This document shows positions 1,952 through 23,174 of a DNA stretch of 28,829 nucleotides, piece by piece. The stretch lies in IMG/VR virus record IMGVR_UViG_3300042731_007028, positions 1 through 28,829 of that record. One strand, given 5' to 3'. The translations under genes were made by a program, and so were the position numbers. Source of the DNA: a virus. Position 1 is the first letter of the stretch. Each line of letters starts with the position of its first letter. The notes below the pieces were generated by a model. The model was given only the letters and a program-made list of their open reading frames with translations. It was not told the DNA's origin and did not search any database.

Positions 1952-1959
1952 ACCTCCTC
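1952..1959 (-). promoter_or_regulatory. Strong ribosome binding site of the tail tube gene, overlapping the previous stop
   Basis: On the minus strand the end of the FkbM gene and the start of the tail tube gene read TGAGGAGGTAACAGATTATG. The TGA stop of the methyltransferase forms the first letters of the GAGGAGGT Shine-Dalgarno sequence. The glycan cassette is therefore joined to the tail tube gene with no spare sequence, which argues that the junction is an evolved and functional one. Confidence 0.75.
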
Positions 1960-2614
1960 ACGTAAACGTGTAAATGTAATCCGACTTTATTGTTGCCACC
2001 TGTGTCGCACCCAGCGCGGTTAAATACCGCAGGCAATCGCCCGTCACATTACCGAACCGCTCCGCCATGCCTTTTTTCGATTCAACTAACACTACCGGTC
2101 TGTATTCCAACAACGTTAACCGCGCGCCCTGCAACGCCAACAGCTCCGCCCCTTCCACGTCCAATTTTAAAAAATCCAACCGATCCAGTTTCAGCGCATC
2201 AAGCGATGTCATTGCCGACGTGCGCACACTACTCACACTCGCGCAGGGTTGCACAAACCGAGACCCCGTATTACCCGCCCGGGTAACGTCGTCCATCACA
2301 GTCACTAACTTGTCTGCATCACCCAGCGCCTCGTTGTAGGTAAACACGTTAGGATAGGCTTCCGTGTTCTTGACCAGGCATTCGTACGTGTCAATCGCTG
2401 GCTCAAACGCAATAACGCGTTCAAAACATCCCGCCAGTACACGCGTCCAGGACCCCACGTGCGCCCCGCCATCCACCGCAACCCCAAACCGCTCCGGAGG
2501 CACGAAAGACAACGCCGTATCCAACCGGTCAAGCTGAAACCCCTCACCGCGTTTAAAGATCGGCTCAAAGTAGCTGTCTGCGTCCGGTAACCAATAATCA
2601 CCCACCTTCTTCAT
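1958..2614 (-). CDS. FkbM-family SAM-dependent methyltransferase (second copy in cassette)
   Basis: This 218-residue protein has the Rossmann methyltransferase fold of the FkbM family. Motif I is VAVDGGAHVGSWT and the acidic SAM-binding strand is VIAFEPAIDTYECL. The family signature LDFLKLDVEGAELLALQGA lies near residue 150, and RPVVLVES follows. FkbM enzymes O-methylate sugars or other small hydroxyl substrates and often cap surface glycans. The start ATG overlaps the stop of the preceding glycosyltransferase (ATGA). It is the last gene of the glycan cassette, and its stop merges with the ribosome site of the tail tube gene. It is a divergent paralogue of the FkbM gene at 4128-4730. The substrate is unknown. 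A phage-made virion glycan is my inference. Confidence 0.88.
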   Translation of the reverse strand: MKKVGDYWLPDADSYFEPIFKRGEGFQLDRLDTALSFVPPERFGVAVDGGAHVGSWTRVLAGCFERVIAFEPAIDTYECLVKNTEAYPNVFTYNEALGDADKLVTVMDDVTRAGNTGSRFVQPCASVSSVRTSAMTSLDALKLDRLDFLKLDVEGAELLALQGARLTLLEYRPVVLVESKKGMAERFGNVTGDCLRYLTALGATQVATIKSDYIYTFT

Positions 2615-4127: not shown

Positions 4128-4730
4128 CTATTGAAACGTAAAAATTTTATCGGGGTAGCGGAACGCGACTTGCGCCGCCCCCCAACTTGTTAACAAGTCA
4201 TCAACAGCACTCTCTTTGTAACCATAACGTTTACCGTAACTCGATTTTTCAACGACAATAACCGGCTTAAATGTTTTCACAGTGGTTTCGGCGCCTCTCA
4301 AGACCAACATCTCTGCGCCTTCCACATCAATTTTAAGTAACCCCAGCGCGCTGAGACCCAGCCCGTCTAACGTCACCATTGATGTGGGATTAATAAACAC
4401 CTCGCCGGGCTTGCGGTGCGCTTTACGCACATAGCGGCTTTGCGAATTGCGCAGTTTCTTTTCCAACGACACCAGCTCGATGTCCGCCTGAGCAACATCG
4501 CCCACCGCGTCGTTATAACAGCGCACGTTACCGTAAGTTAACGCCACATTCAGCAGCTTCTTAAACACGTCCCGACCCGGCTCGAACGCCACGACCTGGT
4601 CAAACCGGGCCGCCATGCGAGCCGTCCAATCACCCACATTGGCCCCGACGTCAACCGCGAGCTTGAAGTTTTCCACGTAGCCAAACGCCAGATCCAAGTT
4701 GCCTAATTGTTCCGTACGTGACGCTTTCAT
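4128..4730 (-). CDS. FkbM-family SAM-dependent methyltransferase (first copy in cassette)
   Basis: This 200-residue FkbM methyltransferase has motif I LAVDVGANVGDWTARMA, the acidic strand VVAFEPGRDVFKKL, and the family signature LGLLKIDVEGAEMLVLRGAE followed by KPVIVVEKSSYGKRYG. I place the start at the ATG at 4730 (MKASRTEQLGN) because it overlaps the upstream stop as ATGA and has AGGAGC upstream. An ATG-less extension to 4757 is open but lacks these features. The enzyme should methylate a hydroxyl group, most likely on a sugar. It shares motif wording with the FkbM gene at 1958-2614, so the cassette holds two methyl-capping enzymes, perhaps for different positions. Confidence 0.88.
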   Translation of the reverse strand: MKASRTEQLGNLDLAFGYVENFKLAVDVGANVGDWTARMAARFDQVVAFEPGRDVFKKLLNVALTYGNVRCYNDAVGDVAQADIELVSLEKKLRNSQSRYVRKAHRKPGEVFINPTSMVTLDGLGLSALGLLKIDVEGAEMLVLRGAETTVKTFKPVIVVEKSSYGKRYGYKESAVDDLLTSWGAAQVAFRYPDKIFTFQ

Positions 4731-5590
4731 CTCAGCTGCTCCTGCAAATACGACCACATCTCACCGCTGCGCATCTCGTCCAGCGTCCATTGACAATACG
4801 CCAAGTCACACCCCCACTGATACCGCGCAGTATCGTTTGGAAATTCAACAGCTTGAAGTTGATCAAGTCGTTGCATCGCGATGGGTTTAGCAATGGCGTC
4901 GCCCAACACCACACAAGGCACACCCGCGAGTATCGCATCGAATGCCGCGTTGCTGCCGTGGGTAATCAACGCCTTTGCTCCGATCAGTTCTTCTTGAATT
5001 TTCTTCTTACCCTGCGAGAATGTGGTGCCGTCGATCGGTACCGCATCCCGCCAGGTGGGTTTGGGCCGATATACGATCTCGTGCCGAGGCAAATATTTCC
5101 TCACCGCACGCACAACCTTGGCCGCGTACTTAGTCGCGTCTCCAATCTGCTGGAAATCACAATATTTTTGCGACGACCCCGCGTAAATAATATGCCGCCC
5201 CAGGGGTTGGCGAGATTCAAAAACGAAACCCAGCCGGCGCCAACGGTCATCCGGGCGTGGAATGGCTTGGAAGTAAGCAAGCGGTTGAAAGCCATCAACA
5301 CTAAATCGGAAGTACTTCAACTTAACTGCCGGATCATCCCCCCGGCCTCGGTAATACCCTTTATCCACATAGACCACGTGTTTACCCAGCACCCGGTGTT
5401 CGCGGAAAATCTCACCACTACGCCCTTTGACGCCCAACACGATCGCCACGTCGGTCTCAGCCAACGGGCCGTCGTATTCGCTCGTCACCCGTGTCTCGTA
5501 ATCCAATCCCAGCGCTCGCGCACCCTCACCCACCCGCTCAGCCAAACGGTGTTCCAGTGGCTTGTTCGAACGCCAGAAGGTGACCCTCAC
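4727..5590 (-). CDS. GT-B-like capsule/glycan transferase paralogue 3
   Basis: The product is 287 residues from a GTG start at 5590 (MRVTFWRSNKPLEHRLAERV). I chose this start because AGGAGG (5598-5603) lies 7 bases upstream and the GTG overlaps the previous stop as GTGA. The C-terminal half shows a GT-B-like nucleotide-sugar region: EIVYRPKPTW, then ALITHGSNAAFDAILAGVPC and VVLGDAIA. The pattern recalls capsule polysaccharide transferases of the KpsC/KpsS type, which also carry a SNxxxDAxxxG motif. It ends AYCQWTLDEMRSGEMWSYL, an end shared with its two upstream neighbours. The three genes are tandem paralogues. Function as a glycosyl transferase is likely; donor and acceptor are unknown. Confidence 0.75.
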   Translation of the reverse strand: MRVTFWRSNKPLEHRLAERVGEGARALGLDYETRVTSEYDGPLAETDVAIVLGVKGRSGEIFREHRVLGKHVVYVDKGYYRGRGDDPAVKLKYFRFSVDGFQPLAYFQAIPRPDDRWRRLGFVFESRQPLGRHIIYAGSSQKYCDFQQIGDATKYAAKVVRAVRKYLPRHEIVYRPKPTWRDAVPIDGTTFSQGKKKIQEELIGAKALITHGSNAAFDAILAGVPCVVLGDAIAKPIAMQRLDQLQAVEFPNDTARYQWGCDLAYCQWTLDEMRSGEMWSYLQEQLR

Positions 5591-12291: not shown

Positions 12292-13248
12292 TTAAGCCGT
12301 TGCTGTGTTGAAAAAGTAGCCTGCCGACGTCAGCACCGCTTTGTGGTCGTAGGCAAACTCGCCCTCAATCCGGTCCGCTTCCAAATGTTCCATGCGGAAG
12401 TTCTTCGTCCGCACCCCGCCGTTCGCCCCGCTGAATGCCCGCCAGGCGAACGTGTAACCCGCCGACGGCACAAGCAGCCCGGGCGCAGGCGCCACGTAGG
12501 CCAACAGCGCATGTTTGCCGGCGATAAAAGCATTGGTTTCCGCGGCTGCACCTTCCTGGCTGGTCGTGTACGACGCACCTGCCACTAGATATCGATCCAC
12601 TTCGAAGAACCGCGCCAACAACGTCGCAGTGATGGAGTCACTGCTCGTGTGTTTAAACCGGTCCGTCACGATGGGGTGGCGCTTTAACGCCTGATGAACG
12701 GGATAGCCCACGATCAACGTGTTGGCGTTCAAGCCGGTCTTCTGCTTAATGCCCGCCTTGCCCGCGTCGACGTCCGTCTCCGGATCGCTCGCCGCATCGT
12801 CCCATTGCGTAAAATCCGTGCCGCCGGTCACATTCGAATCCCAGATACCAGTCGTGAAATAAGATGACGTCCAGTTCACCTCTTTCTGGATCATCAACTG
12901 TTCCATCACGAACGTAGCCGCGCTGCGGTCCATATCAATCGCGGGATCTGAGTTGCTGCGAATCTGATCCGGCACGTCTTTGTGCTCCGCATACACCTCG
13001 CACGTGTACGTGGCCGTGTCGATATCAAAACCGCCGCCTGCCGATTCCGTGCCCGGTGCACGGGGTTTGGCGTTGTTACGTCGAAAGTCGGCCGAGTCGA
13101 ATACGAAATATTCATCGGATCGAAATTCCACCGGCACGGCGGGAAACGCTGTCATTGAAACAAAATCCGTCGCCTGCTGCATGTAAGCCACGCTGATATT
13201 CGTCAGTGCACGGGAGACGTGCACGTCACCTCTGGTCGGTTGAGTCAT
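12292..13248 (-). CDS. Major capsid protein
   Basis: This 318-residue protein begins MTQPTRGDVHVSRALTNISV and carries blocks typical of uncultured-phage major capsid proteins with the HK97 fold: FVSMTAFPAVPVEFRSDEYF, TYTCEVYAEHKDVPDQIRSN, ANTLIVGYPVHQALKRHPIV, HALLAYVAPAPGLLVPSAGY, TFAWRAFSG, and the C-terminal DHKAVLTSAGYFF. The Cys/His pattern and length are normal for this group. Ribosome site AGGAGG sits 8-13 bases before the ATG, behind a T-rich leader, as expected for the most abundant protein. It follows scaffold and decoration genes in the usual order. No delta-domain is obvious; the scaffold is encoded separately upstream. The shell is therefore probably assembled on the separate scaffold. 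Confidence 0.88.
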   Translation of the reverse strand: MTQPTRGDVHVSRALTNISVAYMQQATDFVSMTAFPAVPVEFRSDEYFVFDSADFRRNNAKPRAPGTESAGGGFDIDTATYTCEVYAEHKDVPDQIRSNSDPAIDMDRSAATFVMEQLMIQKEVNWTSSYFTTGIWDSNVTGGTDFTQWDDAASDPETDVDAGKAGIKQKTGLNANTLIVGYPVHQALKRHPIVTDRFKHTSSDSITATLLARFFEVDRYLVAGASYTTSQEGAAAETNAFIAGKHALLAYVAPAPGLLVPSAGYTFAWRAFSGANGGVRTKNFRMEHLEADRIEGEFAYDHKAVLTSAGYFFNTATA

Positions 13249-14867: not shown

Positions 14868-17800
14868 TCAACCCGTTGTCTTACGCATGCCCGTGCCCCC
14901 GATGCTGAATCCGGTGTATTTCCCCGCCTTGACCGCCGCCCATACATCCGCATCCCGAACCTTCACTGACATTATCCAGCTGCCCGCGCGCACGTGGCCC
15001 GTTCCGATCTGCATCGCTTTAGGGGCAATGTAGCTCTCAATCACCTCGATGGGCCCTTTCTTCTTGTGCTGCAACCCCACCACCCGCGAGCGCACCAGAA
15101 ACTTGTGCGCCGCCGCCTCGATCTCCGGCGCCGAGATGTAATCCCCGTGCAAGTCCTCCACGTCGGGCTCCATCACCACGCCGGTAATAATCTGCTGGTC
15201 TTTATCTTGTTTGGCAATTTTAACCACGTAATCTTTTTGCACCCGGTCCGTGGTGCTGACTCGCTGAGGCTTTACACCAGGCCCCGCCCAGATCAATGCT
15301 TTGTGGCCCCGGGCCTTTAATCGCTTGACCGTGTCCTCCCGCGTGTTCGTTTCGATAAACGGTTTCTGATCCTCCGGCTTCGTCACCATCCACGCCCGCC
15401 CTTCCTTGCCGATAGGCACTGACTGAATCAAATAACGCCCCTTGAGTTTATTCCCGTGCAAAAACACCTCGACGAAGTGGCGGTGACGCACGCCCATCTC
15501 GTACGTCCCGTGATCGAGCGCGAAGAACTTCGCCCACGTCTGCGATGTTGCCCCCACGCCGCCCGGCTCACTGACGAATGGTTTATCCACACCCACAGTC
15601 AACCAGTCTTTCGGCTGGGCCAGTTTGAACGTGCCGCGCAACGGTTTATCTGTGCCACTTAACGCCAGCAGTCGGTCGCCACCAGTACGCTTGTTGTCCG
15701 CCGCCGTGCCAATGAACACCGAAAACCCCCACAGCGCGTCGTCCGCCTCAAACCGCAAGTCCCCGTGCACGCTGTGATCCGTTTCCAACAGCTGCTTATC
15801 GCTCGACGCTTTTTCATCGTCCGACAAGCCACGCCAATGGTGCTGGAAGACAAAGTCGCCCTCCCCACTTTTAGGGTACAGCGAATCCCAATTGTCTTTC
15901 CAAAACCGCTCAGCCGACGCCGCGCGTGTGTCGCCTTCTTCGTCTTTCTGTTTCGCCACGTGCTGCAACACGCCGCCCCGTCGGGCAACATCCACCGCCT
16001 GCGAAGTGGTGTAGGGTGTTTGACGGGAAGCGTCCACATCAAGCACATTTGCCCCCAACCACGTTAATGTGTCGGCCGCCTTATCCGGCACCAACTCCAG
16101 CACATGCACAGTAAGGATGTCACCATTATCCGCCTTAACCTCTGTGTTGAACGACCAACCTAAATCAATATAACCATCCATCGTGTTTGACCACACGTCC
16201 CCCTTCGAAGGCGCGAGTCCGCCCCGGTAGTTCCACCCCGTCTTTACTTTCTTTCTATCCAGCACGACCACCTTCAGTTCAACCACTTTCTTCAACTTGC
16301 TCCAGTCCGACGTCCCGCCCGTGGGGTAGGGCGAATCTGCTGCTTTAGCCACCACACCCTCCGACCGGTCAAACTTAAATCCCCAACGCACCGCGTCTTC
16401 CAGCTGCGCTTTCGTATTGACCATGCGATCGGGCGACACACGCAATAACTTCTTATCGGATAACGTCAATCGATCCAGCGCGCGCTTACGAGCCTCAACC
16501 GGTTCATCCCCCAATGGTTCGTCATAATACGGCAGATCAAAGACAGTCAGCACGGGATATTCATCCGCTTCGAATTCAATCTTGTCGCGGTTAAAGCGCA
16601 TTAACTCAGGCCGGGGCAGGCGCTTGCCGTCACGCTCAATGCCCAGGTCGGCGTCCAGCACCCAATCGCCCGTCAGTTTGCGCAACGCCGCGCCCAACGT
16701 CGGCAACTTGGGCAGCAAATCCACATCCGCTTTCCCTTCCGACCACAGCCGCAGCCGGTCGCCTTGCCGCTCCGCCACGACCCGGAAGCCGTTCCACTTA
16801 GGGCCAACCATGACGGGCAGACGGCCCGTTGCCCAGTCCCACAGGGCGTCTACGCTGAATAACTCCGTCACGCCAGCCAGTAGTGGCTTGGGTGGGGTAA
16901 ATGGCGTAAACGGGCGCACACGCGCTTTCGAGACTAAGTAAGTATTACTTAGTAATGGCTTACGTAATTTACCCCGGACGTAAACTCGGGGGGGCGTGCC
17001 GACCTCTTCCAGCCGATCCACCTCGAACCGAGGCCGATCCTCGATCAACGCCGGATCCGTCCAGAACGCGAACGACGACAGGTTGTAAAACGTCTTGTGT
17101 TCAGGATGTGCGAACGCACCGTCCCCCGCCGTGCTGGGCACCTCGAACACGAAGACCCCTCCCGGCTTTAACACCCGATGCACCTCCCGCAGAATTTTGT
17201 CCATATCTTCCAGGTGTTCCAGGGAATGATTCGCCCGCACCACCGCTACGCTGTCATCCGAGGCAGGGATGCCCAGAGCGAGATCATGCACGCGGTCCAC
17301 ACCCGCCGCCGCCGGATCGCGATCAATGCCGGTATATCCCGGCAACACCTCGTCGCCACAACCTAAGTTGAGTTTAAGCGGCGTCTCGTCCTCGTCACCC
17401 GGATCAAGCGGCTCAATGTATTCGTTACCCAGTCGAAGCATGAACGAGGGGGGTCGCAGGGCGTCGACTGTGCCATAAAACTCAGTGCATAACGTGACGT
17501 GCGGCTCATAAGTTTCGTAATCCCAGCTCGCGCCCAACGACCGCGCTTGCTCATATTGCTGCTTCAGCACGTCGCTCTCCAAAGTGAGTACCAGCGTATT
17601 GCCGAACAGCTTGAGCCTTTCCGGTTTAACTATGACGGACTGAGCGCGCGGCTTGTACCCTTTAAACGGTCGGCGGCTGTATACCGTGGTAGCGTGCATG
17701 TCAGCCGGCGCAACCCGGTGCACACGATCTACACTCTTACAAGTCTTTAGGACAGTCTTGTTCAACCAATCATAGAGCCGATCAGCGCTGGTGGGGTGCA

Positions 17801-19070
17801 CCTTAAATGCAGCGTATACGCCACCACTCGACGCCGCCTTCTCAATATCCTGCAGTACGTCGTCCACCCAACGTTGAGCAGGCTCCCCACCCCACAACAG
17901 GTAAGCAATAGTCCCCGCCGTCGGCCCGCCGTCCGTATCTTTCTTGTCGGGCGCGTAATTGCGCTTGTGGCGAGACAGGAATGCGTTGACACGGTTAATT
18001 TCATTCACACTTAACGATTCACCCGCCGCCAATTGTTTCGCCCGCCGCACCCCCGATCCGATTCCCTGTGCTGCTGCCTCACTCGGACTGAGTCCCCCCC
18101 GGTCCCATTTCTCACGCAATGCCAAGCCGCGCTTAGCGGCCGCACGCACCGCCTTAGGGGGAGTGAAACGTCGCGACCGTGCCTTGACTAGTTGCACCTC
18201 AGCATCCTTACGCCGCCTCAGCACTAGGTCGTAAACCGGCATGTAATCCGCGTGGGGTCCTTGCGGATTGTCAATGAAGTGCAACGTCTCTTCTTTGTCC
18301 GGATCCAACGCCTTGCGCGCTTGCAACCAGATATTTTCCGCCTGAATTAAAAAATTATCTTCAGCATCTCGGCGCGCGCGGAACAACACGTCCATATCGT
18401 TAGGGGGTTTCGTCGCGTCAGCCTGAACGCTGGAGCCCACTACACATACGAAATCCTTTACCACCACCAAATCGCCGTCGTCTGTCGTCGGTTCTTCCTG
18501 CTTGCCCAGCTGTTGCGCCGCTCGTGCAAGGGGCGTCTCCGTATCCACCACAACGCCTTTGTCTTGTAACGCCCGCAGCACCCAGGCCGCCGCGTTAACA
18601 AAATTCTCCACCGCACGCCCTTCGCGCTTCGCACTGGCATACCACTGACTCAAGCGCAGCCAGGCCAATTGCAGTTCGTCTTTTGGCGTCTTCGCCAACT
18701 TAGCCGGCACCATCTCTTCCAGGCTGACCTTAAATAACGGCGTCTCGTCATCCTCGTCGTCAGGTCGGGGCCGGGCAATTGCCAACGGCCCGCCCACGTG
18801 CACATCGCCTACCGTGGGTTGCGCCTTCGTCGTCAGTTCTTCCCCCAGTTCGTCCGCCGCAATAGGTGGGGCTAGATCAATTAAATGCTGAACCGTGCTC
18901 TTGTTGATGTCCATCACCTGGCGCAATCCGCTGTCCAGATGCGCCGCGCACACATCCAACCGCCGCGCGCCGCCCGCCCACAGTAGCACCTTAGTCGCCG
19001 AGCCACCACAGAAGAAGCACTGTGGGTCGGTCCCCATCAGTTGCGCTTGGTGGATATGGTCCTCAGTCAT
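14868..19070 (-). CDS. Giant multidomain protein with C-terminal XkdF prohead protease
   Basis: A single 1400-residue frame. Domains read by eye: 1-50, Cys/His finger (CxxC at 18-21, CxxH at 41-44); 200-295, nucleotidyltransferase-like (GSS at 212, DMD at 225, D281); 300-411, a phage domain with QGIGSGVRRA and GTIAYLLWGGEPAQRW; 416-548, Acb1-like 2H phosphoesterase (HAT 459-461, HVT 524-526); 564-715, SAM methyltransferase (LNLGCG, NHSLEHL); 735-1035, ATP-dependent DNA ligase (KWNG 758-761, EGVVAK 904-909, WSKLKK 923-928); 1070-1233, LigD-like 3'-phosphoesterase (HxDxR 1102-1106); 1278-1396, XkdF protease (DLHGDYIS, GLQHKKKG, GSWIMSVKV, YTGFSIGG). It overlaps the Cys/His gene (ATGA) and lies just before the scaffold. 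I infer that the enzyme domains are packaged with the protease and released by cleavage. Activities are untested. Confidence 0.88.
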   Translation of the reverse strand: MTEDHIHQAQLMGTDPQCFFCGGSATKVLLWAGGARRLDVCAAHLDSGLRQVMDINKSTVQHLIDLAPPIAADELGEELTTKAQPTVGDVHVGGPLAIARPRPDDEDDETPLFKVSLEEMVPAKLAKTPKDELQLAWLRLSQWYASAKREGRAVENFVNAAAWVLRALQDKGVVVDTETPLARAAQQLGKQEEPTTDDGDLVVVKDFVCVVGSSVQADATKPPNDMDVLFRARRDAEDNFLIQAENIWLQARKALDPDKEETLHFIDNPQGPHADYMPVYDLVLRRRKDAEVQLVKARSRRFTPPKAVRAAAKRGLALREKWDRGGLSPSEAAAQGIGSGVRRAKQLAAGESLSVNEINRVNAFLSRHKRNYAPDKKDTDGGPTAGTIAYLLWGGEPAQRWVDDVLQDIEKAASSGGVYAAFKVHPTSADRLYDWLNKTVLKTCKSVDRVHRVAPADMHATTVYSRRPFKGYKPRAQSVIVKPERLKLFGNTLVLTLESDVLKQQYEQARSLGASWDYETYEPHVTLCTEFYGTVDALRPPSFMLRLGNEYIEPLDPGDEDETPLKLNLGCGDEVLPGYTGIDRDPAAAGVDRVHDLALGIPASDDSVAVVRANHSLEHLEDMDKILREVHRVLKPGGVFVFEVPSTAGDGAFAHPEHKTFYNLSSFAFWTDPALIEDRPRFEVDRLEEVGTPPRVYVRGKLRKPLLSNTYLVSKARVRPFTPFTPPKPLLAGVTELFSVDALWDWATGRLPVMVGPKWNGFRVVAERQGDRLRLWSEGKADVDLLPKLPTLGAALRKLTGDWVLDADLGIERDGKRLPRPELMRFNRDKIEFEADEYPVLTVFDLPYYDEPLGDEPVEARKRALDRLTLSDKKLLRVSPDRMVNTKAQLEDAVRWGFKFDRSEGVVAKAADSPYPTGGTSDWSKLKKVVELKVVVLDRKKVKTGWNYRGGLAPSKGDVWSNTMDGYIDLGWSFNTEVKADNGDILTVHVLELVPDKAADTLTWLGANVLDVDASRQTPYTTSQAVDVARRGGVLQHVAKQKDEEGDTRAASAERFWKDNWDSLYPKSGEGDFVFQHHWRGLSDDEKASSDKQLLETDHSVHGDLRFEADDALWGFSVFIGTAADNKRTGGDRLLALSGTDKPLRGTFKLAQPKDWLTVGVDKPFVSEPGGVGATSQTWAKFFALDHGTYEMGVRHRHFVEVFLHGNKLKGRYLIQSVPIGKEGRAWMVTKPEDQKPFIETNTREDTVKRLKARGHKALIWAGPGVKPQRVSTTDRVQKDYVVKIAKQDKDQQIITGVVMEPDVEDLHGDYISAPEIEAAAHKFLVRSRVVGLQHKKKGPIEVIESYIAPKAMQIGTGHVRAGSWIMSVKVRDADVWAAVKAGKYTGFSIGGTGMRKTTG
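16933..16953. repeat. Short perfect inverted repeat inside the giant gene
   Basis: ACTAAGTAA, GTA, TTACTTAGT: two perfect 9-base arms around 3 bases. It is AT-rich within a GC-rich coding sequence, at the linker between the methyltransferase and ligase domains (codons for LLSNTYLV). It may be chance, a binding site or a weak RNA hairpin. Confidence 0.4.
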
Positions 19071-19273
19071 AACGCATTCTCATTCAGTTTGTGATCACCG
19101 CACCAGTCATCAAAATACACTACCGGGAAGCCTTGCATGCTCGGCGCATGCCGGCGGCAACGGCCAACCGATTTCACCGACTGCGCAGACACTTTGTCTA
19201 CGTAGAATCTACACGTTCGGCACCGCATGCCTTCGCCGCGGCCCGCCCAGTTATCCGTCTTTTGATCCGTCAT
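19067..19273 (-). CDS. Small Cys/His (zinc-binding type) protein
   Basis: This 68-residue protein starts at ATG 19273 (MTDQKTDNWAGRGEGMRCRT). It holds C-x2-C (MRCRTCRFYV), then CRRH and WCGDH, four Cys and two suitable His, so a small zinc-bound fold is likely. Similar small CxxC...WCGxH proteins are common in proteobacterial phages, with no agreed role. The start lies inside the portal gene's last codons (23-base overlap) and its stop overlaps the start of the giant gene (ATGA), which supports it as a real coupled gene. The giant protein also opens with a CxxC...CxxH finger. I do not know its function. Confidence 0.75.
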   Translation of the reverse strand: MTDQKTDNWAGRGEGMRCRTCRFYVDKVSAQSVKSVGRCRRHAPSMQGFPVVYFDDWCGDHKLNENAL

Positions 19274-20654
19274 CGCCGTCTTCTTCTGCCGGTTTAAACT
19301 GAGGATCCTCGTCTTCATCCGGTGGATCCGATCGCGGCGCGCGGCCACTTGCCATCTCATCTTCATCCTTCTTCTTCGGCAAAGAGGCAAAGCCCCGCAA
19401 CACGTTTTCCAACTCATCATCAGGGAACAATTCCACACCCGCTCCGGCCAGCTTGGCTAGATACTCACCCAACTCTTTAAGGTCCGGCGTTTCCACATCG
19501 CCATGCACGAAGACCGGCAGATCCATCAGATCGTACCCGTTAAGTTGAAACAAGCGCGGCACCGCGTATTGATTGAACACCGCCGCGATCTCATCCATGA
19601 ACGCGCCCAATGCAACCCCGAACAAATCCGTCTTGTTGGAACTGAGCGCAAAGCTGCCGACCTTTTCATGGCCCAGTAAAATAAAATCCGCTAACATCGT
19701 CATGGCAATGCGTTGCTCGTAACGTCCAACTATTTCGTTCGTGCTAAACTGGCGACTACCTCCGGTACTCAACAACTTCAGTTCATATAATAGATTGCCT
19801 TTGTCATCACGCCCGCCCGGCATGACGATGCCCTCTTGCTCGTCACGGCGTATATTGCGCACGATGTTTTTCAACTCCGTGTACACCTGCGCATCTTCGG
19901 CGCTAGCGCCTGACACCATAATTTTAGTCGGCGCATATATTACCGGCAAGCCCGCTAAGTCGCGCTCAATGCCGATGCCTTCAATTTCCTCGATACGCTT
20001 CTTAAAGAACCACGGGCGAAATGCGTTGCGCAATACACTCCGTCCGTCCGGATTATTCTTGTGGGACGACGTGCGAAACAACAGCGCTTTCTCGATCGGT
20101 ATCGTGTAAATCTGCCCGTTGATCGGGTCACGCTGCACGAAACCTTGCACGCCACCGTCATCGTCAATCAGCCAGTGGTCCAAAGTATCTTGCGCACGAA
20201 TCGGAATCTTACGCCAACCAATTTTACCATCTGTATATTTGCTGCGGCGCGCAGGGTCTTTGTTGCGAGAACCTAACCTACGCTTATACACCAACTCACT
20301 GTAACAAAATCCGTAAGGCAAAAAAGACAGTATTTCGCTGACTAAGTTATCCCAGGACTGCGACATGTCCTCCTTCACACTCTCCAGAAACTCAGCCGCC
20401 GCCAGATCATCCGGTTTGTCACTCTGTGATTCGACCCGCCAATCCACCTGTCGAATTAGCATATCCACCGCGAACAATATGGCGCCGATGATGGGGTCGT
20501 TGTCACGCATTTCGCGCAGCGTCTTCCATCGACGCAAGTCCATCAGCTCGCGGACCCACTCCTCGTCGATGCGGCCCTGCCAGTGTTTAAGACCGGTCGT
20601 GCCGACCTCACTGGTCAGTTTAATAGGCTTATCGTTTTGATCTTTTATCGCCAT
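19251..20654 (-). CDS. Portal protein (DUF935, Mu gp29-like)
   Basis: This 467-residue protein begins MAIKDQNDKPIKLTSEVG and shows the portal order: REMRDNDPIIGAILFAVDML followed by IRQVDWRVE, SFLPYGFCYSELVYK, RRLGSRNKD, DTLDHWLIDDDGGVQGFVQR, KALLFRTSSHKNNPDGRS and VLRNAFRPWFFKKRIEEIEG, then AMTMLADFILLGHEKVGSFA. It forms the dodecameric DNA-entry vertex to which terminase and the adaptor bind. The C-terminal 40 residues are acidic and Pro-rich, probably disordered (SDPPDEDEDPQFKPAEEDGD). Length is close to the Mu gp29 type. It follows the gpF-like gene rather than preceding it, unlike Mu and most of its relatives. The ATG at 20654 has only a weak ribosome site. Confidence 0.9.
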   Translation of the reverse strand: MAIKDQNDKPIKLTSEVGTTGLKHWQGRIDEEWVRELMDLRRWKTLREMRDNDPIIGAILFAVDMLIRQVDWRVESQSDKPDDLAAAEFLESVKEDMSQSWDNLVSEILSFLPYGFCYSELVYKRRLGSRNKDPARRSKYTDGKIGWRKIPIRAQDTLDHWLIDDDGGVQGFVQRDPINGQIYTIPIEKALLFRTSSHKNNPDGRSVLRNAFRPWFFKKRIEEIEGIGIERDLAGLPVIYAPTKIMVSGASAEDAQVYTELKNIVRNIRRDEQEGIVMPGGRDDKGNLLYELKLLSTGGSRQFSTNEIVGRYEQRIAMTMLADFILLGHEKVGSFALSSNKTDLFGVALGAFMDEIAAVFNQYAVPRLFQLNGYDLMDLPVFVHGDVETPDLKELGEYLAKLAGAGVELFPDDELENVLRGFASLPKKKDEDEMASGRAPRSDPPDEDEDPQFKPAEEDGDDGSKDG

Positions 20655-20667
20655 GCAATTCTATCCA

Positions 20668-21600
20668 TTACGTATTTAACACCATGGCACACCGACAGTG
20701 CGGATGGAGGGTCGGACCCATCACCGGTCCCAGAGGTGTATCGAACGACATGCCGATAGGTACGCCATCTGGATTCAATTCCGGGACTGATAAGCATAAT
20801 TTACACGTCACATCGTCCGGCGTAATCTGCCACGCCTTCCTCACGTCAGGACCCAACAACCCCTGATCCAACGCTTGCGCCCACGCTTCTTCTTGTCCCG
20901 CATTCACCGCGTTGATAGTTTCCGTTCGCGCGATGCGCGTCGCGCGGTAGCGCAACTGGCGTTGACGATAGCGGTCTGTCATGCGCTTGATCTGTGCCGG
21001 CTTACGCCCTTCGGACACCAGCATTGCTTTGTAATTATCCACCGCGCTTGCTTGACGGGGGGTGAGTGCTAACAGGTCCTTAATCCGTGTTGACTGTTGC
21101 TGAACCGTTAACCCTTGCGCCACGCCCTCAGTGATGATACGGCGAATACCTTCCTTCGTCGCATCACCCACCTGCATTACCAATTGCGCCGCCTTCGTAC
21201 GCGCGTAGTCCGCCGCGCGGGGATTGAAAATATCAAACACGTATTGCGCCTGAATCGATTTCGGTAACAACTGCCCCGCCGCAATTGCCGCTTGATTATA
21301 CGCCCCACGCAACTCGCCAACTAACGGCGCCAGATGTTTATCCAATTGATCAATGCCCAGCGCCGTGAACACCGCCCGTTCGTTACCGCTCTCCAGCGCG
21401 GCCTGTAAAGCTTTTATTTTTGTCGTGCCCTTCATCGCCTCGACCGCCCGCAAAAACTGCCGGCGCACTGCCGGCGTGGCACGATCCGCAAGTTGATGAA
21501 GCACACGATAAAATTGTCGGTTCGTCTTCGGCACCTTACGGATCACGTAATCCGACACATCGCCCGCAGCTTTCTGCAATAAGATTGACTCCGCACTCAT
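20668..21600 (-). CDS. Minor head (head morphogenesis) protein, Mu gpF-like
   Basis: This 310-residue protein begins MSAESILLQKAAGDVSDYVI. The C-terminal third holds the gpF domain: RYRATRIARTETINAVNAGQ, KAWQITPDDVTCKLC and GPTLHPHCRCAM, with CKLC and HCRC as the likely metal-binding pairs. The middle is helical (YNQAAIAAGQLLPKSIQAQY; TVQQQSTRIKDLLALTPRQA). Such proteins are minor capsid components that act in head assembly and are thought in some phages to enter the cell with the DNA. The start overlaps the terminase stop (ATGA). It is encoded before the portal, the reverse of the usual order. Confidence 0.9.
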   Translation of the reverse strand: MSAESILLQKAAGDVSDYVIRKVPKTNRQFYRVLHQLADRATPAVRRQFLRAVEAMKGTTKIKALQAALESGNERAVFTALGIDQLDKHLAPLVGELRGAYNQAAIAAGQLLPKSIQAQYVFDIFNPRAADYARTKAAQLVMQVGDATKEGIRRIITEGVAQGLTVQQQSTRIKDLLALTPRQASAVDNYKAMLVSEGRKPAQIKRMTDRYRQRQLRYRATRIARTETINAVNAGQEEAWAQALDQGLLGPDVRKAWQITPDDVTCKLCLSVPELNPDGVPIGMSFDTPLGPVMGPTLHPHCRCAMVLNT

Positions 21601-23174
21601 ACTCGGCCCCCCCGCCAGGGGCTCTGACGCGTTAAGCTAAACGGCGCAATCGCTGGAACCAGGTGATCCGTTCGCTCACGCTTACGAATGTGTTTTAAAA
21701 ATTGTGACATCGCGTCCAGTTCGTCCCACATAGGTGGGGCGGGGAAGTGACTCAAACATTCTTCGAGGAACGCCAGCCAGGCCGTGGGCACGTGCATCGG
21801 ATCGGGAAGGGAGATAACGCCCGCTTCGAGACTGGGTGTCTGCGTGTCGAACCGCGTAATCTTGTCCGACTCAGGCTCAATCGGAATCACCGGCAAATCC
21901 GTATGCTCTTCCAACTCTTGTATCAACGACGAACCGCTGGATTTATCTTCGATGCAAATCGCGTCGGGGTGCCACTCATCCGCCATCGCAATAACCATGC
22001 GTTTTAACGCCGGATAGCGCACATGATCTTTCCACTGATGGGCCAGGTACCACTGCGCATCGCGCCGGACATACACTTGCCCCACACTGGGATTGTTGAT
22101 CTCTCGTCCTTTTTGTGCGGTGTCGTAACTCAGGATGACTTCGTCGTAACTTGTCGGCAATACCCGATACCGGGGGAACCAATCCGTCTTCACCCGACCG
22201 CCGCCAACAGGGGTGGGGCGCTGCTGGTGCTGGCCCGCGTACCCGTACGTGCCAAGTCGTAATTTCGCCTGGTCTCTCGCCGTCTCGTCAAACCGCGCCG
22301 CATGCAGCAACTCATCTTTCTGCCGAATTTTCTTTTTGCCACTGAGTGGGTATGTAATGACCGTACGACGTTCAGCTTCCTGGGGGATGACGACATGTTC
22401 CCAATGCGCCTCCCGCCGATCCTCCAGCGCTTCATGGAATTGGGCGCTGCGCTTCGCCGCCGCCTGTTGCGATAAAATATGGCCAGTGCTATCGTCCACA
22501 TGCAGTCGCTGCATAATAATCACCTCGGACGATTTCTGGGGATCGTTCTTCCGCGTTGACCAAGTCTGATCCACCCACTCGTTCGTCGCCTTCCGCTCCG
22601 GCTCCGACAGGGAACGCCGGGGATCCATGGGGTCGTCCAGTATCAACTTATCCCCGCCCTCACCCGTCGCGGTACCTCCCACGGAGGTCGCGATGCGGTG
22701 TCCCCTCGCCGTGGTCTGGAACTTCGTCTTCTCGTTCTGATCTCGGGCCAGATGCACTTGCGGGAATACCTGGCGATACCACTCCGACTCAATCACCACG
22801 CGGCAATCGACTGAGTGCTTCGTCGCCAACTTGTCCGCGTAGCTCGCGGCCAATATCTGATCACTCGAATCCTTGCCCAACAACCAAGCAGGCCACCCCA
22901 CCGTGCCGCAGATTGATTTTAGAAATCGGGGGGGCACATTAAGGATTAGATTGATAACTTGTTTTAAATAAACCGCCTCAAGATATTCCGCCATGTAGTC
23001 TATGTGCCAGTTGTGACGATACGCTGTCTTCGGATCCACCGTCGTGAAGACCTTCTTGATAAAAGGAGCCACGTGTTCTCGCATACGCTTCCGCGCTAAC
23101 AACTGTTTCGCCGCTTCCGAGCGAATAATCACAAGGTTCGAGCGGGCCGCCTCAACGGAATTAGTGTTCACCAC
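21597..23174 (-). CDS. terL: Large terminase subunit
   Basis: The product is 525 residues with a GTG start at 23174 (a second GTG follows directly); CGGAG lies about 10 bases upstream. It is the packaging motor. ATPase: Walker-A-like NVPPRFLKSI (residues 79-88, the deviant PPRxxKS form), LILDDPMDP (177-185) as Walker B, preceded by GGTATGEGGDK. Nuclease: VILSYDTAQKG (D351), CIEDKSSGSS (D410), and WDELDAMSQFL near the C-terminus as third acidic cluster. It therefore looks catalytically complete. It overlaps the putative small terminase by 14 bases and the gpF-like gene by 4 (ATGA). Gene order and motifs make this one of the safest calls in the window. The packaging type (cos, pac, repeats) cannot be told from this. 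Confidence 0.95.
   Translation of the reverse strand: MVNTNSVEAARSNLVIIRSEAAKQLLARKRMREHVAPFIKKVFTTVDPKTAYRHNWHIDYMAEYLEAVYLKQVINLILNVPPRFLKSICGTVGWPAWLLGKDSSDQILAASYADKLATKHSVDCRVVIESEWYRQVFPQVHLARDQNEKTKFQTTARGHRIATSVGGTATGEGGDKLILDDPMDPRRSLSEPERKATNEWVDQTWSTRKNDPQKSSEVIIMQRLHVDDSTGHILSQQAAAKRSAQFHEALEDRREAHWEHVVIPQEAERRTVITYPLSGKKKIRQKDELLHAARFDETARDQAKLRLGTYGYAGQHQQRPTPVGGGRVKTDWFPRYRVLPTSYDEVILSYDTAQKGREINNPSVGQVYVRRDAQWYLAHQWKDHVRYPALKRMVIAMADEWHPDAICIEDKSSGSSLIQELEEHTDLPVIPIEPESDKITRFDTQTPSLEAGVISLPDPMHVPTAWLAFLEECLSHFPAPPMWDELDAMSQFLKHIRKRERTDHLVPAIAPFSLTRQSPWRGGRV

What the first reader, a model, noticed from the sequence alone, without database searches (positions are those of the whole stretch)
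17436..17825. Acb1-like (anti-CBASS) 2H phosphoesterase domain inside the head protein
Residues 416-548 hold two HxT motifs (HAT 459-461, HVT 524-526) 65 residues apart. The surrounding wording (MHATTVYSR; LGASWDYETYEPHVTL) resembles the T4 Acb1 family, known to degrade the cyclic oligonucleotides that activate CBASS. If right, it would place an anti-CBASS nuclease in a protein probably delivered from the capsid, so that it acts before new phage genes are expressed. The family likeness is from memory of the motif pattern and was not aligned.
Basis: partly seen in the sequence, partly recalled or inferred. Interest (0 to 1): 0.82.

Follow-up and report, generated by a model that had tools for sequence, protein, structure and literature searches.

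The report
Anti-CBASS domain in phage protease polyprotein
A phage carries an enzyme domain that looks able to destroy the alarm molecules of a bacterial immune system (CBASS), and it is built into one long protein that also holds DNA-repair enzymes and the protease that matures the phage head, so it may be packed in the particle or made beside the thing that sets off the alarm.

Summary
Residues 415-561 of a 1400-aa ORF (window 14868-19070, minus strand) match Pfam Acb1 far above its cut-off. A confident AlphaFold2 model superposes on solved Acb1 of phage FBB1 (Z 17.9, 1.6 Å) better than on LigT-type 2H enzymes (Z about 12). Both HxT motifs, three of four base-stacking aromatic positions and the adenine-reading Glu are kept; the lid Trp is lost.

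The host protein is not a plain head protein. It is a polyprotein of NTase-like, Acb1, methyltransferase, ATP-dependent ligase and LigD-type phosphoesterase modules with a C-terminal XkdF-type head-maturation protease, lying between portal and major capsid genes. Related polyproteins lack Acb1. Two lack the whole 262-residue cassette at the matching junction; a third carries a Dam-like methyltransferase there. So Acb1 sits in an exchangeable cargo slot.

Acb1 domains are fused again and again to portal, MuF and maturation-protease proteins. Portal and MuF fusions of 2H domains were described in 2017; the protease polyprotein setting I did not find in the literature held. Enzyme activity, packaging and delivery are inferred, not shown. 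An open alternative is late action beside the maturation protease, a reported CBASS trigger.

The parts
14868..19070 (-). 1400-aa polyprotein ORF (ATG start) that holds the Acb1 domain
17388..17828 (-). Acb1-type 2H phosphoesterase domain, residues 415-561
   Evidence: Pfam PF23474, PDB 7t26, AF2 model, fold match
17688..17696 (-). first HxT motif H459-A-T461 (T4 Acb1 H44/T46)
17493..17501 (-). second HxT motif H524-V-T526 (T4 Acb1 H113/T115)
17412..17414 (-). E553, aligned with E141 (adenine N6 contact)
   Evidence: residue role from PMC9117128
17379..18164 (-). inserted cassette, residues 303-564 (XkdF-associated domain plus Acb1); missing at the matching junction in L093 and L094, replaced by a D12 DNA methyltransferase in L096
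17838..18179 (-). domain of unknown function, residues 298-411, next to XkdF in other phages (52% identical in Limnohabitans phage DC31)
   Evidence: phrog_2859
18165..18632 (-). N-terminal region 147-302, conserved in all five relatives, with a G-S-x(n)-D-x-D motif suggestive of a Pol-beta-type nucleotidyltransferase (fold not confirmed)
   Evidence: AF2 poor
17001..17378 (-). class I methyltransferase-like domain, about residues 565-690
   Evidence: Pfam Methyltransf_11 and _23
16290..16811 (-). ATP-dependent DNA ligase adenylation domain, residues 754-927 (KWNG at 758, EGVVAK at 904, WSKLKK at 923)
   Evidence: Pfam PF01068
15366..15773 (-). LigD-type 3'-phosphoesterase-like domain, about residues 1100-1235 (HxDxR at 1102)
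   Evidence: TIGR02777 E 0.002, LigD_N weak, conserved with L088/L093/L095; L095 scores above the LigD_N cut-off
14886..15227 (-). XkdF-type head-maturation protease domain, residues 1282-1395; H1335 and S1389 present
   Evidence: Pfam PF14550 E 5.2e-32
19251..20654 (-). portal protein (context)
20668..21600 (-). MuF-like head protein (context)
21597..23174 (-). terminase large subunit (context)
12292..13248 (-). major capsid protein (context)

Best explanation
Residues 415-561 are a T4/FBB1-type Acb1 domain: a metal-independent 2H phosphodiesterase that most likely opens adenosine-containing cyclic di- and trinucleotides (3'3'-cGAMP, cAAA and similar) and so blocks CBASS effectors. It is one exchangeable cargo module of a polyprotein whose C-terminal XkdF-type protease would place it inside the procapsid. 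The likely course is: the polyprotein co-assembles with scaffold and capsid, the protease cuts the cargo modules free, and the modules (ligase, 3'-phosphoesterase, methyltransferase, Acb1) stay with the packaged DNA and enter the next cell with it, repairing and shielding the DNA while Acb1 keeps the alarm nucleotide low. Shown here: family, fold, active-site residues, genomic position, modular insertion. Inferred: activity, cleavage, packaging, ejection.
For: Pfam Acb1 79.6 bits; phmmer to 7t26 E 7.8e-9. AF2 pLDDT 93.0, pTM 0.87; VIA Z 17.9 and 1.6 A over 130 residues to Acb1, against 15.6 for the BCSR5 phosphodiesterase and about 12 for LigT. Kept: Y419, H459, T461, F489, Y518, H524, T526, E553, matching the residues that contact 3'3'-cGAMP in Acb1 (PMC9117128). 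Gene lies between portal/MuF/TerL and scaffold/major capsid, the XkdF slot also seen in DC31. Relatives carry other DNA-protection cargo in the same polyprotein: UDG and D12 methyltransferase. In L093 and L094 the NTase-like part runs straight into the methyltransferase where the window has 262 extra residues; L096 has a D12 methyltransferase there. Acb1 domains are fused to head proteins in many other phages and prophages.
Against: No assay and no virion proteomics. The lid Trp (W147) is Asp559 here. The branch is long (1.56 changes per column) and the AU test does not reject placing it with the head-fused clade (p 0.26). In portal-fused relatives the domain would stay on the particle unless it is cut off, so fusion to a head protein does not by itself mean delivery. 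No cleavage site was identified. The window is a fragment, so other anti-defence genes of this phage are unknown.
Confidence: 0.55

Rival explanations
1. The domain is a working Acb1 but acts late, in the cell where the polyprotein is made, not after delivery. Tethering to the maturation protease puts the antidote at the assembling head, when and where CBASS is set off.
For: [quoted passage not shown] Acb1 is coupled to an XkdF protease in the window and in L054, L057, L060, L069 and L075; starred branches of the tree force at least 3 label changes for this group.
Against: The other cargo modules (ligase, phosphoesterase, UDG, DNA methyltransferase) make more sense acting on DNA that has just entered a cell. 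Most head fusions found are to portals, not proteases. Whether XkdF-type proteases trigger CBASS is not known.
Confidence: 0.27
2. The 2H domain is an RNA or DNA end-healing enzyme (opens 2',3'-cyclic phosphates) that partners the ligase in the same polypeptide.
For: 2H enzymes and ligases cooperate in RNA repair; PHROGs names this family 'RNA ligase' (phrog_755); a ligase and a phosphoesterase lie in the same chain.
Against: The ligase domain matches ATP-dependent DNA ligases, not RNA ligases. L088, L093, L094, L095 and L096 keep the ligase without any 2H domain, with a LigD-type phosphoesterase in those whose ORF reaches that far. Fold and profile favour Acb1 over LigT. Iyer et al. 2017 never saw this 2H type with RNA ligases (PMC5512222).
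Confidence: 0.08
3. An Acb1-fold phosphodiesterase with a shifted target (another cyclic or linear signalling nucleotide), or a domain that binds without useful turnover.
For: Lid Trp lost and the W74 position is Phe; long branch; 2H enzymes have varied targets.
Against: All four catalytic residues and E141 are kept; catalytic His/His are invariant and the Thr positions nearly so across 126 distinct family rows; FBB1 Acb1 itself has Phe at the W74 position.
Confidence: 0.1

Closest known systems
Acb1 (T4 gp57B, phage FBB1 Acb1, PDB 7t26/7t27; Hobbs et al. 2022, PMC9117128)
   Same: Fold, HxT/HxT tetrad, Tyr12, aromatic at W74 and F107, Glu141.
   Different: T4/FBB1 Acb1 is a free protein of about 152 aa; here it is a module inside a 1400-aa head-gene polyprotein, and the lid Trp147 is Asp.
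2H domains of polyvalent proteins, fused to MuF or portal (Iyer et al. 2017, PMC5512222 section 20)
   Same: 2H domain in a multidomain phage protein encoded among head genes, with the published guess that it might destroy immune nucleotides.
   Different: That text names MuF and portal fusions; 'DNA ligase', 'LigD' and 'maturation protease' do not occur in it. Here the anchor is an XkdF protease and the companions are ligase, phosphoesterase and methyltransferase.
Acb1-like C-terminal domain of portal proteins (Pam3 portal 8hds; many prophage portals)
   Same: Same 2H family in a virion head protein.
   Different: Portal anchor, lid Trp mostly kept; in the tree those sequences form another large group, though a joint clade is not rejected.
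XkdF-type head-maturation protease
   Same: C-terminal domain and gene position.
   Different: Usually a short protein; here about 1280 residues of enzymatic cargo precede it.
P1 DarA/Hdf internal head proteins (PMC12810830)
   Same: Precedent for anti-defence proteins carried inside a phage head.
   Different: Anti-restriction, separate proteins, no Acb1.

Membership tests
Acb1 (anti-CBASS 2H phosphodiesterase) | Profile match above the curated cut-off | tested here: met
   PF23474 79.6 bits against 27
Acb1 (anti-CBASS 2H phosphodiesterase) | Fold closer to Acb1 than to other 2H enzymes | tested here: met
   VIA Z 17.9 (7t26) against about 12 (LigT); Foldseek ranks 1 and 2 are Acb1
Acb1 (anti-CBASS 2H phosphodiesterase) | HxT/HxT catalytic tetrad | tested here: met
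   H459, T461, H524, T526
Acb1 (anti-CBASS 2H phosphodiesterase) | Base-stacking aromatics Y12, W74, F107 | tested here: met
   Y419, F489, Y518 by sequence alignment; the F489 pairing lies next to a gap
Acb1 (anti-CBASS 2H phosphodiesterase) | Glu141, adenine contact | tested here: met
   E553
Acb1 (anti-CBASS 2H phosphodiesterase) | Lid aromatic W147 (not family-defining: W in only 4 of 14 solo rows) | tested here: not met
   D559
Acb1 (anti-CBASS 2H phosphodiesterase) | Metal-independent cleavage of cyclic di/trinucleotides; protection from CBASS | not testable with these tools
   needs a bench assay
LigT / 2',3'-CPDase branch of 2H | Profile match to LigT_PEase or 2_5_RNA_ligase2 | tested here: not met
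   absent at E 0.1 or better
Phage polyvalent protein | Several unrelated enzymatic domains in one phage protein encoded among head genes | tested here: met
Phage polyvalent protein | Packaged and transferred to the host with DNA | not testable with these tools
   needs virion proteomics and an ejection assay
XkdF-type head-maturation protease | PF14550 above cut-off, in the gene slot before the major capsid | tested here: met
   110.9 bits against 24; synteny

The most novel reading that the evidence does not exclude
Trigger and antidote in one chain: because phage maturation proteases can set off CBASS, phages have repeatedly fused Acb1 to the maturation protease so that the alarm nucleotide is destroyed at its source, and in this phage the same polyprotein also ships DNA-repair and Acb1 cargo in the head through exchangeable slots.
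Probability: 0.15. Interest if true: 0.87.

Novelty: new variant of a known kind. Interest (0 to 1): 0.64.

Why it matters
[quoted passage not shown] The sequence sets here show it widely built into head proteins, and several times into maturation proteases, a protein class reported to trigger CBASS. That turns two open questions into simple tests: do phages carry pre-made anti-CBASS enzymes in the particle, and do they disarm CBASS at the trigger? The ligase/phosphoesterase/UDG/methyltransferase polyprotein also looks like a head-delivered DNA repair kit with swappable modules.

Tried and rejected
Chance motif pair: rejected by profile and fold. RNA-ligase name from PHROGs: rejected as a label carried by the T4 57B family. 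Ligase-partner reading: ranked low because the relatives keep the ligase without the 2H domain. Single-protein scans of viral contigs with the Acb1 domain and with the protease domain found nothing; alignments were needed. The N-terminal NTase-like fold could not be confirmed: AF2 mean pLDDT 47 with six sequences, and phmmer gave no meaningful PDB match. PADLOC gave only weak methyltransferase matches. Tree placement with the solo T4-type clade (97/83) is suggestive only: AU test p 0.26 for the alternative. The two primary CBASS-protease reports were not read (one is not held, the other is a preprint), so they are cited second-hand.

Full report
What is there. The window is a 28,829-base virus record. 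On the minus strand the order is terminase large subunit, MuF-like protein, portal, the 1400-aa ORF 14868-19070, an unknown 370-aa protein, a scaffold-like protein and the major capsid protein. The ORF is open throughout. Pfam finds Acb1 (417-557), a class I methyltransferase (578-666), an ATP-dependent DNA ligase domain (754-927), a weak LigD 3'-phosphoesterase (1100-1215) and a strong XkdF-type maturation protease (1282-1395). NCBIfam adds the NHEJ ligase domain and the LigD phosphoesterase domain, both below their equivalog cut-offs.

Observation. HAT 459-461 and HVT 524-526 are as stated. The motif pair alone occurs in 4.8% of shuffles, but the domain as a whole is far from chance: 79.6 bits to PF23474, and E 7.8e-9 to the crystallised FBB1 Acb1. 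The domain is slightly longer than reported, 415-561.

Family. An AlphaFold2 model from 50 related sequences has pLDDT 93 and pTM 0.87. Its best solved matches are FBB1 Acb1 apo and 3'3'-cGAMP complex (Z 17.9 and 17.6), then the BCSR5 phage phosphodiesterase (15.6), then LigT-type enzymes (about 12). Residues known from the Acb1-3'3'-cGAMP structure (PMC9117128) map as Y12=Y419, H44=H459, T46=T461, W74=F489, F107=Y518, H113=H524, T115=T526, E141=E553, W147=D559. FBB1 itself has Phe at W74 and Tyr at F107. The lid Trp is missing here, as in most of the 14 solo rows. Across 126 distinct family rows both catalytic His and the first Thr are invariant, and the second Thr is T in 112, S in 13 and N in 1; H113 was part of the genome search pattern, H44 and T46 were not.

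Tree. In a 65-row tree the window domain falls with free T4-type Acb1 sequences (97/83) and not with the large head-fused group. Its branch is long and the AU test does not reject the alternative (p 0.26), so this is only a lead that the fusion is separate from the portal fusions.

How common. Among 80 viral loci (the best of 355 matches) the Acb1 ORF resembles a portal in 39, XkdF in 6, MuF in 3 and DUF2213 in 1; 21 are short free proteins. Among 62 bacterial genome loci, 54 resemble portals. Pfam confirms examples of each: Phage_portal_3, Portal_Mu, Phage_portal, MuF (weak), DUF2213, ChaB-Acb1-XkdF. The sampling is by sequence pattern, so these are not frequencies in nature.

The polyprotein. 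Five relatives were found (L088 and L097 are the same contig; L093, L094, L095, L096). None has Acb1 (L088 by its Pfam scan). They share the NTase-like part, ligase and phosphoesterase, and the XkdF protease wherever the contig reaches it (L096 runs off its contig before the protease), but differ in inserts: UDG in L093, L094 and L096, a D12 DNA methyltransferase in L095 and L096. Window residues 302 and 565 correspond to neighbouring residues 250 and 248 of L093, so 303-564 is extra relative to L093 and L094; L096 has its D12 methyltransferase at that point. A second slot lies at 1036-1044, empty in the window and L088, holding UDG or D12 elsewhere. Acb1 is therefore cargo, not a working partner of the ligase.

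Mechanism. Shown: identity, fold, residues, position, modularity. [quoted passage not shown] Inferred: the XkdF domain carries the cargo into the procapsid and frees it; cargo then enters the next cell. Precedents for head-carried anti-defence proteins exist (P1 DarA/Hdf, PMC12810830; polyvalent proteins, PMC5512222). The main rival is late, local action: a phage prohead protease was reported to interact with a CBASS sensor (PMC12409349) and targeted proteolysis is listed among CBASS triggers (PMC13424991). Both can be true.

Known versus new. Acb1 is known. Fusion of 2H domains to MuF and portal, with a guess at destroying immune nucleotides, was published in 2017 (PMC5512222). I found no report, in the literature held, of Acb1 joined to a head-maturation protease or of this ligase-phosphoesterase-protease polyprotein; most subscription papers are not held. 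I file it as a new variant of a known kind.

Noticed in passing
window 14868-19070; L088, L093, L094, L095, L096: Polyprotein family ending in an XkdF protease with ligase, LigD-type phosphoesterase, methyltransferase and, in relatives, UDG and Dam-like methyltransferase: apparently a head-gene-encoded DNA repair kit with two exchangeable slots.
   Followed up: partly
L094:5699-8062 and L094:8059-9363: The polyprotein is split into two overlapping ORFs inside the UDG module (4-base overlap, GTG start); could be real gene fission or a frameshift/assembly error.
   Followed up: no
window 18165-18632 (residues 147-302): Conserved N-terminal region with GS...D-x-D, like a Pol-beta nucleotidyltransferase; fold not confirmed.
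   Followed up: partly
window 18738-18755 and 17379-17396: Repeated 18-nt stretch (89% alike) encoding D(D)EDETPL at residues about 106-113 and 558-564, i.e. near two module borders; possible linker or protease site.
   Followed up: no
L018, L019, L033, L079: Acb1 domains in other very large or odd proteins: a 1817-aa protein with a ResIII/SNF2 helicase, a 2778-aa protein, a 1920-aa protein with a pyridine nucleotide-disulphide oxidoreductase, and a fusion with a topoisomerase I-like domain.
   Followed up: no
window 1958-2614 and 4128-4757: Two nearby methyltransferase-like genes of the same PHROG family (phrog_8156).
   Followed up: no
window 18939-19019: N-terminal C-x2-C ... C-x2-H pattern (residues 18-44), zinc-ribbon-like.
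   Followed up: no
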